DNA of 47,974 nucleotides from an uncultured Synergistales bacterium. Lineage in GTDB: Bacteria > Synergistota > Synergistia > Synergistales > Aminobacteriaceae. Location: NCBI GenBank assembly GCA_905233525.1, contig CAJOEW010000003.1, positions 1 to 47,974 on the forward strand. The letters run 5' to 3'. Positions 34,465-47,467 of this stretch are shown here, piece after piece; position 1 is the stretch's first letter, and each line of letters opens with the position of its first letter. The notes below the pieces were generated by a model. That model ran no database searches, was not told the DNA's origin, and was given only the letters and a program-made list of their open reading frames with translations. The translations under genes were made by a program, and so were the position numbers.

Positions 34465-34490
34465 TAATTTATAACGTGAAATTTTATGCG

Positions 34491-34523
34491 CCTCTCTGTT
34501 TTTAGAGAGGTGTTTTATTTTTT
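34491..34523 (+). terminator. Intrinsic terminator after glgB
   Basis: CCTCTCT (34491-34497) pairs with AGAGAGG (34504-34510) around a six-base loop, followed by TGTTTTATTTTTTT. A strong factor-independent terminator. Confidence 0.85.
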
Positions 34524-34587: not shown

Positions 34588-37500
34588 ATGCCCATTTTTA
34601 ATTTTTATATGCAGCACGTTAAAGGTTATAGAAATTCAAGACTCATAAATTTTTTCATGACTCCGTTTTCATGGCTTAATGCTTTTATGGTTGCAATAAT
34701 TGATTTTTTGCGCGCGCATGGCCTGTTAAAAACTGATGAGCCGCCGTTACCTCTTATAAGCGTAGGAAATTTAACATACGGCGGTACAAATAAAACTCCG
34801 TTCGTTGAAATGCTCGCCGAATATATGCTGTCACGAAATATTAAAACCGGAATAGTTACACGCGGCTATACTGGTAAAAATCACGGCGTAATAATTATTT
34901 ACAACGGCGAAGGCGATCGAAATCTTACAGGCGATGAACCGTTATTATTATCGCGCCGGCTTCCTGATGTTCCTGTAGCTGTTGCAAAAAAACGCCTTGA
35001 CGGAATAATTGAGCTTAAAAAATTAGGCTGTGAACTCGTTATAGCTGATGACGCTTTTCAACATAAAAATTTATCGCGCGATGTTGATATTGTTTTAATT
35101 GATTCGACTTGTCCATTTGGATCCGGTAAATTGATTCCTGCCGGTATTCTTCGTGAAAAAATAAGCTCTTTATCCCGCGCTTCAATGGTCGTTTTAACAA
35201 AAACAGATCAAACCAGCCAGGATAATATAAAAAATTTACACGCCGTCATTGAAAAATATATTGCGCCTGAAAAAATATTCACGTCAATAATTAAAAATGA
35301 CGGCTGGATTTTAAACGGTACTGATAAAATTCCTGAACATGATTCTAAAATATTTGCCTTCTCAGCTATAGGGAATCCTGAAAGTTTTATAATATCTTTA
35401 AAAAAATACGGCTTCATTGTTACAGGAATAAAAAATTTTACGGATCATCATAAATATAATTCTAAAGATCTCGAAAATTTATACTCACTCGCTAAAAACT
35501 CAAACGCTGATTTTATGACGTGTACTGAAAAGGATTTATATAATTTGCCTGACGAATGGCCAATAAAAGAAATTCCATTGATAACGCCGAAAATTAAAAC
35601 GCTCATAAATTCACCTGAAAAATTTTTTTATACGCTGACACAAAATTTAAAGCCTAAGATCGTAATCGCTTCAAATGGTTTTGGTGAAGACGCTATAGGA
35701 GTCGTTTTAGCTAAGAAGTTACGCGAAAAATTGCCGAACGCTGAAATTTTAGCCTTTCCATTAGTTGGAGCCGGTGACGCTTATAAAAAATCAGGTTTTG
35801 AGATTCGTTCAGCTTTATCGCTCACGCCTTCAGGAGGTGTTTTAAAATACAGCCTTAAAGATTTATTAGGCGATATGCGTTCAGGATTATTAAGAGATGT
35901 CAGGGCGCAATTAAATGACTGGAAAAAATTAGCTCACAAAATCAGAACACCTATATGCGCCGGCGATGTATATTTGCTGCTTCATACTCTTTGGGGATCT
36001 GGTGCGAGACCTGTTTTTATGGCGACGGCTAAGACTGTATATTTGAGCGGCCATTGGAGATTAGAGCGTGCGTTGATAAATAAATTCACGTTGAAAACTT
36101 GGGCGCGCGATCAGGAAAGTGCGGACGAACTTGGAGCAAAGGCATTATATACAGGTAATCCCATAATGGATATTTTATACGAGGGCGATAACGAAAAATT
36201 ATTATCAAACGATCGCGAGATATTATTATTACCAGGCAGCAGAGCGCGAGCTTTGAAGGACGTAAAATTATTATTAGACACGGCAATTATTATCAGACAT
36301 GAGCGCGAATTAAATTTCAGAATGGTTTTAGCACCTACGATCGATTTTGACGAGTTCATAAAATCCTGTAAAGATTACGGCTGGGATTTTGACGGCTCTT
36401 CAAACGAATTGACACACGGCGCAATAAGAATCGAACTCACGACGCAGTCAATTGCTTCAGCTTCGAACGGTATAAAAATTTTAATCGGACTAGGAGGCAC
36501 AGCTAATCAATTATGCGCAGGCTTGGGCATTCCTGTAATTTCGATTGATGAAAAAGGTAAACGCGTCCAAAAAAAATTATTAGGCGATGCTGAAATTCTC
36601 GTAAAACCTTCAGCTGATGAGCTTGCTGGAAACGCATTAAAAATTATTGATGACGAGGCGTTATATAAATTCATGAGTGAAGCAGGTAAAAAACGTATGG
36701 GACATCCAGGAGCGCTTGACGGTATTGTAAATTATGTATGTGAAAATTTGGGCTGGGACATTCGCGAAAATGTTTACTGCAAATTAAAAACAGACTCGAA
36801 TATAAAAAAAGATGTCTTGATTGAGAGTCAAATAATATCAAATTTAAAAACAGGCTCAAAAATTCAGCGCGTCATAAATTTTGATGATATCGACTCGACA
36901 AACGAATACGCAAAAAAAATTTCATTGGAAGGCGCTTCACATGGAACACTTATAACGGCCAATCATCAAACAGCAGGCAAAGGAAGACACGGACATAAAT
37001 TTGAGTCGCCGGCCGGAACTGGTTTATATATGAGTTTGATAACGTGTCCGAAATTTGATGAAGCCGGAAATTTTCAAATGATGACGATCGCTGCGGCTGT
37101 AGCTGTTTGTAAATCTATCGAAGATTTGACCAGCCTGAAACCTGTAATAAAATGGGTGAACGATGTATATTTAAACAATAAAAAAATTTGCGGTATATTA
37201 ACAGAAGCCGTAAATAATCCCGATAAAAATGAGCTTGTTAGCATTGTAACGGGAATCGGTGTTAACATATCAACAAAGAAATTTGAAGCTGATATAGCCG
37301 GCTCAATAATGGATAATGAAAATATAAAGCCTTTCGATCGTAATGAACTGGCTGCGAAAATAGCTGATTATCTCATTGATTACGCAGAAGATCTTTCAAA
37401 TCATGAGCTGATAAATTTTTATAGATCGCGTTCATTTTTGTTAGGTCATAAAATAAAATTCATGCGAGGCGATCAAGAATTTCAAGCTGAAGCGGTTGAT

Positions 37501-37596
37501 ATTAACAGTGACGGCGGATTGATCATTAAAAATTTTGACGGTTCAAACGAGATTTTGAGATCAGGCGAAGTATTTTTGATACGTCCAGCAGAATAA
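34588..37596 (+). CDS. Three-domain fusion: LpxK, LpxB-like glycosyltransferase, BirA
   Basis: One uninterrupted frame of 1002 residues. Residues 1-340: tetraacyldisaccharide 4'-kinase LpxK, with an N-terminal membrane helix, P-loop GNLTYGGTNKTP (60-71; family has GGTGKTP) and DDAFQH (154-159; family DDGFQH). Residues about 355-725: LpxB-related domain of the TIGR03492 type (VIASNGFGEDAIG, LLPGSRARALKD, IGLGGTANQLCAGLG). Residues about 758-1002: biotin protein ligase BirA without HTH (DDIDSTNEYAK, TAGKGRHGHKFESP, KWVNDVYLNNKKICGIL). LpxK phosphorylates the lipid A precursor; BirA biotinylates carboxylases. The AAAGGA site is 24 bases from the ATG, so the exact start is uncertain. bioY follows by 39 bases. 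Confidence 0.85.
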   Translation: MPIFNFYMQHVKGYRNSRLINFFMTPFSWLNAFMVAIIDFLRAHGLLKTDEPPLPLISVGNLTYGGTNKTPFVEMLAEYMLSRNIKTGIVTRGYTGKNHGVIIIYNGEGDRNLTGDEPLLLSRRLPDVPVAVAKKRLDGIIELKKLGCELVIADDAFQHKNLSRDVDIVLIDSTCPFGSGKLIPAGILREKISSLSRASMVVLTKTDQTSQDNIKNLHAVIEKYIAPEKIFTSIIKNDGWILNGTDKIPEHDSKIFAFSAIGNPESFIISLKKYGFIVTGIKNFTDHHKYNSKDLENLYSLAKNSNADFMTCTEKDLYNLPDEWPIKEIPLITPKIKTLINSPEKFFYTLTQNLKPKIVIASNGFGEDAIGVVLAKKLREKLPNAEILAFPLVGAGDAYKKSGFEIRSALSLTPSGGVLKYSLKDLLGDMRSGLLRDVRAQLNDWKKLAHKIRTPICAGDVYLLLHTLWGSGARPVFMATAKTVYLSGHWRLERALINKFTLKTWARDQESADELGAKALYTGNPIMDILYEGDNEKLLSNDREILLLPGSRARALKDVKLLLDTAIIIRHERELNFRMVLAPTIDFDEFIKSCKDYGWDFDGSSNELTHGAIRIELTTQSIASASNGIKILIGLGGTANQLCAGLGIPVISIDEKGKRVQKKLLGDAEILVKPSADELAGNALKIIDDEALYKFMSEAGKKRMGHPGALDGIVNYVCENLGWDIRENVYCKLKTDSNIKKDVLIESQIISNLKTGSKIQRVINFDDIDSTNEYAKKISLEGASHGTLITANHQTAGKGRHGHKFESPAGTGLYMSLITCPKFDEAGNFQMMTIAAAVAVCKSIEDLTSLKPVIKWVNDVYLNNKKICGILTEAVNNPDKNELVSIVTGIGVNISTKKFEADIAGSIMDNENIKPFDRNELAAKIADYLIDYAEDLSNHELINFYRSRSFLLGHKIKFMRGDQEFQAEAVDINSDGGLIIKNFDGSNEILRSGEVFLIRPAE

Positions 37597-37635: not shown

Positions 37636-38166
37636 ATGACTAAGAAAATTTCATTATGTGCATTATTTGCGGCTCTTATTGCAATTGGAACGAGGATAAT
37701 TATACCAACGCCGTTATTACCTCTTACGCTTCAGACGTTCATGGTAATTTTAGCCGGCTTAATTTTAGGGAAGAAGTTAGGCGCGTTTTCAGTAAGTGTA
37801 TATGTAATAGCAGGTTTAGCAGGTTTACCGGTGTTTACTCAGGGCGGCGGCTTAGGTTATATTTTTCATCCTACGTTCGGTTATACGGTGAGTTTTATTT
37901 TTGGCGCGTGGCTTGCAGGATTCATAGCAGAGAAATTAAAAACCAGTGTAACAAATTTATTTATAGCCGGATTTTCAGCAATAGTTTTAATTTACGCAAT
38001 AGGAATCCCGTATTATTATTTGGCTGCACGTTTCTACACAGGCAATATATTAGCGGCTCGGACGTTGTTAATTTATTTTGTGTTGATGCCGTTGCCTGGA
38101 GATATTATCAAATGTTTAGCGGCGGCCATATTTGTAACGAAGCTTAAAAAATTCCAAGTCCAATAA
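37636..38166 (+). CDS. bioY: Biotin transporter BioY
   Basis: 176 residues, six membrane spans. The BioY landmarks are PTPLLPLTLQTFMVILAGLI near the start, VYVIAGLAGLPVFTQGGGLG, the substrate-site block GYIFHPTFGYTVSFI, and LPGDIIKCLAAA near the end. Binds biotin and imports it, alone or as the S component of an ECF transporter. GGAGG is about 15 bases before the ATG. Directly after the fusion gene that ends in BirA, so biotin uptake and attachment are linked. A 163-residue frame overlapping in another phase has no support. Confidence 0.9.
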   Translation: MTKKISLCALFAALIAIGTRIIIPTPLLPLTLQTFMVILAGLILGKKLGAFSVSVYVIAGLAGLPVFTQGGGLGYIFHPTFGYTVSFIFGAWLAGFIAEKLKTSVTNLFIAGFSAIVLIYAIGIPYYYLAARFYTGNILAARTLLIYFVLMPLPGDIIKCLAAAIFVTKLKKFQVQ

Positions 38167-45133: not shown

Positions 45134-47467
45134 TTGAGACGTTTCATTTTTGCGCTTCTGCTTGTTTTCGCAATTATGGGTACTGCGTTCGCTGAAGACG
45201 CTGCACCTGTTGTTGATGCAGGCGGTTGGAAATTCGATAAGCCTATTAAAATTATATGTCCGTGGGGAGAGGGCGGCGGTGCTGACAGTACATTAAGGGC
45301 GCTTGCTCCATTACTTGAGAAATTTTTAGGACAAAAGGTCGAGATCCAAAATATAACAGGTTCAAACGGCGGTAACGGTGCTATGTTTGCAAAAGAACAG
45401 CCGGCGGACGGTTATACGTTTTTACTTGGAACACAGAGCTTATTTATTCAGGAGATCGTCGGAGAACTACCTTTAAAATTCCGTGATGAGTTTGTGCCTG
45501 TCGCTAAACTTGTTCACGCGATTAACATCATAGCTGCTTCACGTAACGCAATGAACGAACGCGGTTATAAGAATTTTGCAGAGCTTCGCGATTTTGTAAA
45601 AGCCCATCCGTATAGTATTTCGGTCGGTATGCTTACGAGAACAGGTCTTGACAGTTTAGCGCTGAAACAAGCTACAGAGGGATTAAATTTCTTAGAAGTC
45701 GCTTATCCTTCTGGTGCAGGTATGAATGACGCTCTCGCTACAGGCCAGATCGATTTAATGATCACCGGTACAAATGAAATTGAAAGCTTAATCGACAGCG
45801 GAACCGTTGTGCCTTTATTAGTGCTTTCAGAAAAGAGAATGAACCGTTATCCTTCGATTGAGTGTTCAAAAGAATTAGGCATTAACGCTTCGTTAGGTGC
45901 TGCACGCGGAATTTATGCCAGAAAAGGAACGCCTGAAGGTGCCGTAAAAGCAATGCTTAACGCGATTGAGCAAGCTGTAAACACTCAAGAATGGAAGGAC
46001 TTTTTACAAAAAGGCGGTTATGATGAGAGACCGAGCTTCGCAAAAGCTGATGAGTTCACGAAAGAAATTAACGATGAGTATTCAGCATTCACAGCTCTTT
46101 TAAAACCAGCGCCGGCCAAAAAAGACGCAAAACCAGCTCCGTCAACTCCTCAAAAATTGGCGTTAATCGGCTTCATAATGGTGGCTGTGTTGATTTTCTG
46201 CTTAATCAGAAAGGTCGTAATACCGCCTGTAGCATTTATATTATTACCGACGATCGCAGCTTTAATTGCCGGATTTGATCCTTTGACTGTAAATAAATTC
46301 GCTGCCTCTGGTATATCAAAAATGGTTTCGACGGTTTCATTATTTGTATTCTCGATCTCATTCTTCTCGTTAATGAATGATGTAGGAGTATTTGATCCGA
46401 TCGTTAACGCTTTGATCAAGAAGGCCGGAACAAGTATTGTATTGATATTCTTAGCTACGGCAGCAGTCGGTATCATTGGACATCTTGACGGATCAGGAGC
46501 AACGACATTTATTATTACGATTACGGCCATGCTTCCGTTATTCAACAGCTTAAAAATGGATAAGCGCGCTTTAATGTTACTTGTCTGCGTTGCAATCGGC
46601 GTTATGAATGTTTGTCCTTGGGGCGGTCCTACAATGAGAGCTGCTACAGTTCTTGAGACGGATCCTAATAATTTATGGCATAAGCTTTTACCGGTTCAGG
46701 GTGTAATGCTTGTAACGACGTTTGTTGTAGCGTTTTTATTAAGCCAGATTGAAAGACATCGTCAGAAAAAATTAGGTCTAACGGCTGAAACTCCTGCTGT
46801 AGCTGTTGAGAATGCTGCTGATGATAAAGCTGACGCTATGAAAAATATTGCAGGCTGGAAAAAAGTATTTAACGCGCTTCTTGTAATTGCGGTAGTAGCT
46901 GCTTTGATGTTTACGAAATTCAATCCTGCTTACGTGTTCATGATCGCATTAGCTTTCGCATTACTTGTTAATATTTCAAGCCTCAAAGAACAGAACAAGA
47001 AATTAAAAGAGTACGGCGTGGCAGCTATGGCAATGGTTGTAACGTTATTCTCTGCCGGAATTTTCACAGGTGTTTTAAGCGGTACAGGAATGCTTAACGC
47101 AATGGCTTCAGCTGTTGTTACAGTTATTCCTCCTGCAATGGGAAGATATACGCATATAATCGTGGCATGTTTCGCAGTTCCGTTAATTATGTGTTTAGGC
47201 ACGGACTCATTCTATTTTGGATTATTACCTGTCGTTGTAGGTATTTCCTCACAATTCGGCGTTAATCCTATGGACGTGGCCTGTGTGTTGCTCGTAGCGG
47301 AAAATGTCGGCGTTATGATTTCTCCGTTATCACCAGCGGCTTATTTAGGTTTAGGATTGCTTGAAATCGATGTAGGCGAACATATTAAATATTCATTGCC
47401 TTGGATTTGGGGAATCAGTATCCTTTCGATCGCTGCGTGCATACTTTTAGGAGTGGCTCCGCTGTAG
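45134..47467 (+). CDS. Fusion of a TctC-type binding protein to a CitMHS carrier
   Basis: 777 residues in one frame. Signal peptide 1-21 (MRRFIFALLLVFAIMGTAFA). Residues about 30-320 are a TctC/Bug-type tricarboxylate-binding domain (IKIICPWGEGGGADSTLRAL, NITGSNGGNGAMF, PADGYTFLLGT, VAYPSGAGMNDALATGQIDL). A Pro/Ala/Lys linker (KPAPAKKDAKPAPSTP) leads to a CitMHS citrate-metal carrier (about 338-777; TM1 LALIGFIMVAVLIFCLIRK, GHLDGSGATTFIITI, NVCPWGGPTMRAATVLE, CLGTDSFYFGLLPVV, ISPLSPAAYLGLG). The binding domain is outside and TM1 enters with basic residues inside, which fits CitMHS topology. Likely takes up citrate or a related acid, with the receptor tethered to the carrier. TTG start behind GGGAGG. 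Confidence 0.87.
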   Translation: MRRFIFALLLVFAIMGTAFAEDAAPVVDAGGWKFDKPIKIICPWGEGGGADSTLRALAPLLEKFLGQKVEIQNITGSNGGNGAMFAKEQPADGYTFLLGTQSLFIQEIVGELPLKFRDEFVPVAKLVHAINIIAASRNAMNERGYKNFAELRDFVKAHPYSISVGMLTRTGLDSLALKQATEGLNFLEVAYPSGAGMNDALATGQIDLMITGTNEIESLIDSGTVVPLLVLSEKRMNRYPSIECSKELGINASLGAARGIYARKGTPEGAVKAMLNAIEQAVNTQEWKDFLQKGGYDERPSFAKADEFTKEINDEYSAFTALLKPAPAKKDAKPAPSTPQKLALIGFIMVAVLIFCLIRKVVIPPVAFILLPTIAALIAGFDPLTVNKFAASGISKMVSTVSLFVFSISFFSLMNDVGVFDPIVNALIKKAGTSIVLIFLATAAVGIIGHLDGSGATTFIITITAMLPLFNSLKMDKRALMLLVCVAIGVMNVCPWGGPTMRAATVLETDPNNLWHKLLPVQGVMLVTTFVVAFLLSQIERHRQKKLGLTAETPAVAVENAADDKADAMKNIAGWKKVFNALLVIAVVAALMFTKFNPAYVFMIALAFALLVNISSLKEQNKKLKEYGVAAMAMVVTLFSAGIFTGVLSGTGMLNAMASAVVTVIPPAMGRYTHIIVACFAVPLIMCLGTDSFYFGLLPVVVGISSQFGVNPMDVACVLLVAENVGVMISPLSPAAYLGLGLLEIDVGEHIKYSLPWIWGISILSIAACILLGVAPL

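What the first reader, a model, noticed from the sequence alone, without database searches (positions are those of the whole stretch)
34588..37596. LpxK, LpxB-like and BirA fused in one 1002-residue protein
A single open frame joins a lipid A 4'-kinase, an LpxB-related glycosyltransferase-like domain and biotin protein ligase. LpxB and LpxK act in succession in the Raetz pathway, so their fusion makes sense, but BirA belongs to carboxylase activation. A three-way joining could link membrane lipid output to acetyl-CoA carboxylase activity through biotin, or could simply be a read-through fusion. I know of no described protein with this order.
Basis: partly seen in the sequence, partly recalled or inferred. 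Interest (0 to 1): 0.8.

Follow-up and report, generated by a model that had tools for sequence, protein, structure and literature searches.

The report
Lipid A kinase–biotin ligase fusion
In one bacterium of the Synergistota, a gene for making the outer-membrane lipid has been joined to the gene for the enzyme that attaches biotin, and the biotin enzyme's DNA-binding switch has been lost; it looks like a real but one-off gene fusion rather than a new signalling system.

Summary
The 1002-residue open frame at 34588-37596 is real. It encodes LpxK (residues 1-350), an LpxB-related domain (351-734) and a biotin protein ligase (about 742-1002). The first two domains are no novelty of this genome: they form one chain in 36 of 41 genomes searched. 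The BirA part is new: in 185 Synergistota genomes only this one shows BirA in the same frame (listings cut). [quoted passage not shown] Here helix-turn-helix and operator are gone, the lipid A gene sits in their place, and bioY still follows. The joint keeps the LpxB-related domain to its natural end and starts BirA just after the helix-turn-helix. No other BirA was found in the assembly, so the fused ligase is probably the working copy, freed from biotin repression. A canonical lpxB exists separately. The biotin carriers found sit beside decarboxylase-type genes, which weakens the proposed acetyl-CoA carboxylase link. Doubts: one metagenome assembly, a 7-A run at the joint, a missing cysS.

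The parts
34588..37596 (+). fusion gene, 1002 aa: LpxK - LpxB-related - BirA ligase
34588..35637 (+). LpxK domain, residues 1-350; GGTNKTPF P-loop (residues 65-72), DDAFQH and DHH motifs kept as in relatives
   Evidence: PF02606 21-348; solved LpxK chain 4ehw, E 1.9e-32
35638..36789 (+). LpxB-related domain (TIGR03492-like), residues 351-734, kept to its natural C-terminal end
   Evidence: (C-terminal ends of relatives)
36790..36810 (+). joint, residues 735-741, ending in a run of seven A (36804-36810); one A fewer or more would end the LpxK-LpxB-related chain at 743 or 745 residues
36811..37596 (+). BirA ligase without helix-turn-helix, residues 742-1002 (catalytic PF03099 36889-37266; BPL_C 37441-37578)
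36817..36819 (+). in-frame TTG (Leu744), aligned close to the start Met of the free-standing HTH-less BirA of G007; no Shine-Dalgarno-like sequence before it
34488..34523 (+). terminator-like hairpin with T run after the 32536-34464 gene (glycogen branching enzyme by its residues), between it and the fusion gene
37636..38166 (+). bioY (biotin transporter), the usual downstream partner of birA in relatives
   Evidence: PF02632 E 6.7e-39

Best explanation
A rearrangement in this one lineage placed the ancestral LpxK-LpxB-related gene in front of birA-bioY and joined it in frame to birA, with loss of birA's upstream operator and helix-turn-helix. The product is a trifunctional chain whose enzyme domains most likely act independently: lipid A 4'-kinase, an unknown glycosyltransferase-like step, and biotin protein ligase. 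BirA changed from a repressor-ligase (Group II) to a ligase only (like Group I), and birA and bioY are now expressed with a lipid A gene instead of under biotin control. Shown: single frame, domain content, no other BirA in the assembly, no HTH and no operator, placement of the joint. Inferred: that the chain is made whole, that all domains are active, and that the fusion was tolerated rather than selected for a lipid-biotin link.
For: Intact 1002-aa frame and three domains. Only one BirA match in the genome. BirA lies in a frame over 600 aa in G000 only: 38 of 38 other genus genomes with a match have frames of at most 373 aa, and among the other listed phylum rows none exceeds 520 aa. Relatives have an HTH+ligase BirA of about 327 aa followed by bioY. 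The joint follows the natural end of the LpxB-related domain and starts at about residue 60 of the G055 BirA, just after its HTH (6-58). 20 of 26 HTH-bearing relatives have a GTAAAC-N17-19-GTTTAC operator with at most 1 mismatch upstream of birA, including closest relative G055 (0 mismatches); the stretches upstream of lpxK, of the BirA part and of bioY in this window give 4 mismatches each, no better than shuffles. LpxK-LpxB-related: 195 conserved columns, 0 deviations; BirA: 91 conserved columns, 5 deviations. Removing the HTH leaves B. subtilis BirA fully active (PMC4016012, passages read).
Against: One metagenome-type assembly; no second genome shows the joint (closest relative G055 has birA separate, and its lpxK contig stops at residue 469). 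The frame hinges on a 7-A run. cysS, divergent neighbour of lpxK in G055, has no clear homologue in the assembly, so the region may be imperfect. In E. coli, BirA without its N-terminal domain is badly impaired (PMC4016012), so activity is not guaranteed. BirA shows a hint of faster change in G000 (21 against 8 lineage-specific changes with a consensus outgroup), but single outgroups give 26/25, 26/21 and 31/18.
Confidence: 0.68

Rival explanations
1. Two overlapping genes, not one: the true A run has one base fewer or more, so lpxK-lpxBrel ends at 743 or 745 residues and an HTH-less birA starts near TTG 36817, like the HTH-less birA of G007/G020.
For: With A6 or A8 the first frame ends within a few codons and overlaps the TTG; the tail length would be like that of relatives. 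HTH-less separate birA exists in G007/G020 and G009.
Against: 44 A/T runs of 7 or more lie in 41 open frames of at least 150 aa; the fusion gene itself has six others that keep its frame. Residues 740-744 (KKDVL) are BirA-like and in frame. No Shine-Dalgarno-like sequence precedes the TTG.
Confidence: 0.11
2. A chimeric contig: two unrelated loci joined by the assembler.
For: Single assembly of 66 contigs; cysS, next to lpxK in G055, is missing; no relative has birA beside lpxK in the loci examined.
Against: The joint is in frame and falls at the domain limits. Elsewhere in the genome the joint DNA has only short mismatched matches (28 bases at 86% across the joint; longest perfect match to any part of the query 18 bases). 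No birA HTH piece is left: the only hit is a chance match in another frame of the open frame at G000:C12:33483-34325. bioY still follows birA. Base composition is similar on both sides of the joint.
Confidence: 0.07
3. The fusion is a device that ties lipid A synthesis to biotin supply, for example by shared abundance, allostery or localisation.
For: LpxK is membrane-associated (general knowledge, recalled); the fusion places birA and bioY behind a lipid A gene and away from biotin control.
Against: Seen in 1 of 185 genomes (listings cut). The biotin carriers found are beside decarboxylase-type genes. HTH loss without fusion happened in other species of the genus.
Confidence: 0.06
4. The frame is single but the protein is present in pieces (internal start at TTG 36817, proteolysis at residues 735-748, or slippage on the A run).
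For: Joint of about 15 weakly conserved residues; in-frame TTG close to the start of the HTH-less BirA; A7 run.
Against: No Shine-Dalgarno-like sequence at the TTG; A7 runs are common in this DNA.
Confidence: 0.08

Closest known systems
Two-domain LpxK-TIGR03492-like protein of Synergistota
   Same: same first 734 residues, 52-77% identical within the genus
   Different: relatives stop at about residue 735; no BirA attached
Group II biotin protein ligase (BirA, HTH-BPL-BPL_C) in a birA-bioY pair, as in G055
   Same: catalytic and C-terminal domains, downstream bioY
   Different: HTH and operator missing; fused at the N-terminus
Group I biotin protein ligase / engineered B. subtilis BirA delta2-65 (PMC4016012, passages)
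   Same: ligase without DNA-binding domain, cut at nearly the same place
   Different: those have nothing large in place of the HTH
BirA-type III pantothenate kinase bifunctional protein (NF009862)
   Same: a biotin ligase joined to an unrelated enzyme; that model matches only the ligase part here
   Different: another partner enzyme, at the other end of the ligase (recalled)

Membership tests
LpxK (tetraacyldisaccharide 4'-kinase) | NCBIfam TIGR00682 over cut-off | tested here: met
   199.6 bits, cut-off 91.95
LpxK (tetraacyldisaccharide 4'-kinase) | P-loop, DD.FQH and DHH motifs (their role is recalled) | tested here: met
   GGTNKTPF, DDAFQH, DHHKY aligned to solved LpxK chain 4ehw and to relatives
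TIGR03492 lipid-A-disaccharide synthase-related | score over curated cut-off | tested here: not met
   203.1 bits against 219.2; related, not filed as a member
Canonical LpxB | PF02684 match of the middle domain | tested here: not met
   no PF02684 hit at E<=1; a canonical lpxB is at G000:C33
Biotin protein ligase | TIGR00121 over cut-off | tested here: met
   152.4 bits, cut-off 83.1; GKGRHG and KWVND stretches present
Group II BirA (repressor-ligase) | N-terminal helix-turn-helix | tested here: not met
   present in G055 (PF08279), absent here
Group II BirA (repressor-ligase) | BirA operator upstream of birA/bioY | tested here: not met
   4 mismatches at all three places tested; 20 of 26 HTH-bearing relatives have at most 1
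Biotin protein ligase | enzymatic activity | not testable with these tools
   needs complementation

The most novel reading that the evidence does not exclude
A single essential polypeptide carries out lipid A phosphorylation and protein biotinylation, having swapped a biotin-sensing repressor domain for a lipid A enzyme, so that biotin ligase and transporter output now follow envelope synthesis instead of biotin level.
Probability: 0.2. Interest if true: 0.6.

Novelty: new variant of a known kind. Interest (0 to 1): 0.36.

Why it matters
If confirmed, it is a natural conversion of a Group II biotin ligase to a ligase-only form by gene fusion, a conversion that PMC4016012 (passages) made by engineering in B. 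subtilis. The genus offers natural comparisons: HTH lost with fusion (here), HTH lost without fusion (G007/G020, G009), and HTH plus operator kept. It would also show that a lipid A kinase tolerates a large C-terminal cargo. It does not show a new signalling route.

Tried and rejected
Search for a left-over birA HTH in the genome: one weak hit at G000:C12:33539-33667 (E 0.0019), rejected because it lies in another frame inside the open frame at C12:33483-34325.

Idea that the middle domain is the organism's only LpxB: rejected, a canonical lpxB is present. Local profile comparison of the middle domain with canonical LpxB gave a weak match (P 3.4e-4, probability 37.6), and with the LpxB-like gene of the usual lpxK neighbourhood a weaker one (P 0.026).

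Long open frames in other genomes (G106 1949 aa, G086 1357, G087 1349, G045 1326) were checked as possible further fusions. In G106, G086 and G045 the gene called is of ordinary size (804, 756, 737 aa). In G087 the called frame is 1323 aa, but its first 581 residues match no Pfam family, so I take that part for chance open frame. G091 (1146) and G092 (1116) were also fetched: called genes of 1005 and 788 aa; in G091 the extra part overlaps the transporter gene upstream.

Relative-rate test: inconclusive. Promoter scan: no + strand site between the terminator and lpxK. Literature: 'LpxK + BirA + fusion' 0 papers; 'TIGR03492' 0 papers; searches on Synergistota lipid A, on biotin ligase fusions and on LpxK/LpxB fusion listed nothing that I recognised as this architecture (listings and abstract starts only). 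Passages of PMC3087551 report an lpxC/fabZ fusion; none of the passages shown reports one of lpxK. Passages of PMC5882156 class the BirA family as intermediate in domain promiscuity. Structure prediction and fold search were not run. accC was not searched for.

Full report
What is there. The open frame at 34588-37596 (+) starts with ATG and gives 1002 residues without a stop. Pfam finds LpxK at 21-348, the biotin ligase catalytic domain at 768-893 and its C-terminal domain at 952-997. NCBIfam adds TIGR03492 at 361-719, below its curated cut-off, and places lpxK and birA_ligase above theirs.

What is old and what is new. Searching 41 genomes (own plus 40 relatives), 36 have one match that covers both LpxK and the LpxB-related domain (from residue 44 or earlier to 725 or later); G009 and G029 have it in two pieces of one frame, G024 is cut by a contig end, G016 is split between two frames, and G021 has no match. 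In 185 genomes of the phylum 180 have a match (the list of matches is cut). So the two-domain chain is ancestral. BirA is different: 163 of 185 genomes have it, and 39 of 43 in the genus. Only the window's own genome has it in a frame over 600 aa; the longest other frame in the listed rows is 520 aa with a stop inside the match (the weakest rows are not listed). No other listed row reaches beyond residue 774.

The closest relative. Its LpxK part is 77% identical and its BirA 67-68%. There BirA is a separate 329-aa protein with an HTH_11 domain at 6-58, followed by bioY. Its lpxK contig ends at residue 469, so the end of that gene cannot be seen.

The joint. Relatives end their LpxB-related domain with a GW..RE.VY..L-like motif plus a few residues. 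The fusion has GWDIRENVYCKLK, then TDSNI, then KKDVLIESQ, which aligns with LKSDVLSEKG of the G055 BirA, right after its HTH. Little or nothing of the first protein is lost, and of the second only the HTH. The joint carries a run of seven A; any single-base change there would end the first protein within a few codons. Such runs are common here (44 in 42 kb of open frames), so an error at just this one is possible but not likely.

Loss of the switch. In 26 HTH-bearing relatives I looked for a BirA operator upstream of birA; 20 have GTAAAC-N17-19-GTTTAC with at most one mismatch, mostly about 60 bases before the start and matched by 0 to 2 of 500 shuffles each. Six did not pass in the stretch and spacing tested, though L030 and L042 show a similar site with narrower spacing. 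Two HTH-less relatives (G009, G007) have 4 and 3 mismatches. In this window the stretches upstream of lpxK, of the BirA part and of bioY have 4 each. Of the 30 BirA loci, one is the window itself and one (L032) is cut by a contig end; the other 28 were scanned. HTH loss also happened in G007/G020, where another gene stands 23 bases upstream of birA, and in G009. So the genus has lost this repressor domain more than once; the fusion is one way of doing so.

Is it working? LpxK-LpxB-related keeps all 195 columns that are at least 95% conserved in 27 sequences; BirA departs at 5 of 91 in 30 sequences, none of them in the GKGRHG or KWVND stretches. No second BirA was found in the assembly, and two biotin carrier domains were, so an active ligase is expected. 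Removing the HTH leaves B. subtilis BirA active but harms the E. coli enzyme (PMC4016012, passages).

Is the link meaningful? The carriers lie by carboxyltransferase genes, one with OAD_gamma, so the ligase may serve a decarboxylase; I did not search for accC. The fusion is seen in one species. I see no evidence for a lipid-biotin signal, but joint expression of birA-bioY with lpxK is the likely consequence of the arrangement, since a terminator-like hairpin precedes the gene and bioY follows 39 bases after it.

Is it an artefact? For: one assembly, and cysS, which sits back to back with lpxK in G055, has no clear homologue in it (only a 25% match to a part). Against: in-frame joint at domain limits, joint DNA not repeated elsewhere, no orphan HTH, bioY in place, similar composition. 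In both G000 and G055 lpxK has left the transporter gene that precedes it in other species such as G020 and G017, so movement of this gene is seen in two separate assemblies.

Verdict. Most likely a real gene fusion, seen in one species, that turned an ancestral two-domain lipid A protein into a three-domain one and removed BirA's repressor function. Unusual and easy to test, but not a new kind of system.

Noticed in passing
window 45134-47467: 777-aa protein joining a TctC solute receptor (55-321) to a CitMHS-type permease (357-722) through a Pro/Ala/Lys-rich linker; in G010 and G022 the receptor is a separate gene of about 328 aa. A possible second fusion in the same window.
   Followed up: partly
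genome G000 (whole assembly): No clear cysteinyl-tRNA synthetase found, although cysS is the divergent neighbour of lpxK in G055. Gap or real loss unknown.
   Followed up: partly
L053:1492-2262, L056:8426-9196, L045:1501-2289: Free-standing birA without helix-turn-helix in G007, G020 and G009, starting near the place where the fusion joins.
   Followed up: yes
L054:8895-8924: BirA operator-like palindrome upstream of birA in G055; the only site with at most 1 mismatch in that 18-kb stretch.
   Followed up: yes
L054:8950-9545: hslV of G055 is broken by a small deletion with frameshift relative to G000.
   Followed up: no
L076:2-2432, L077:4038-6451: Both biotin carrier genes lie downstream of a 519-aa carboxyltransferase gene; one with OAD_gamma between.
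   Followed up: partly
L100:8480-11327 and L101:7902-10750: The ABC transporter and LpxB-like genes that precede lpxK in other species stand without lpxK in both G000 and G055.
   Followed up: partly
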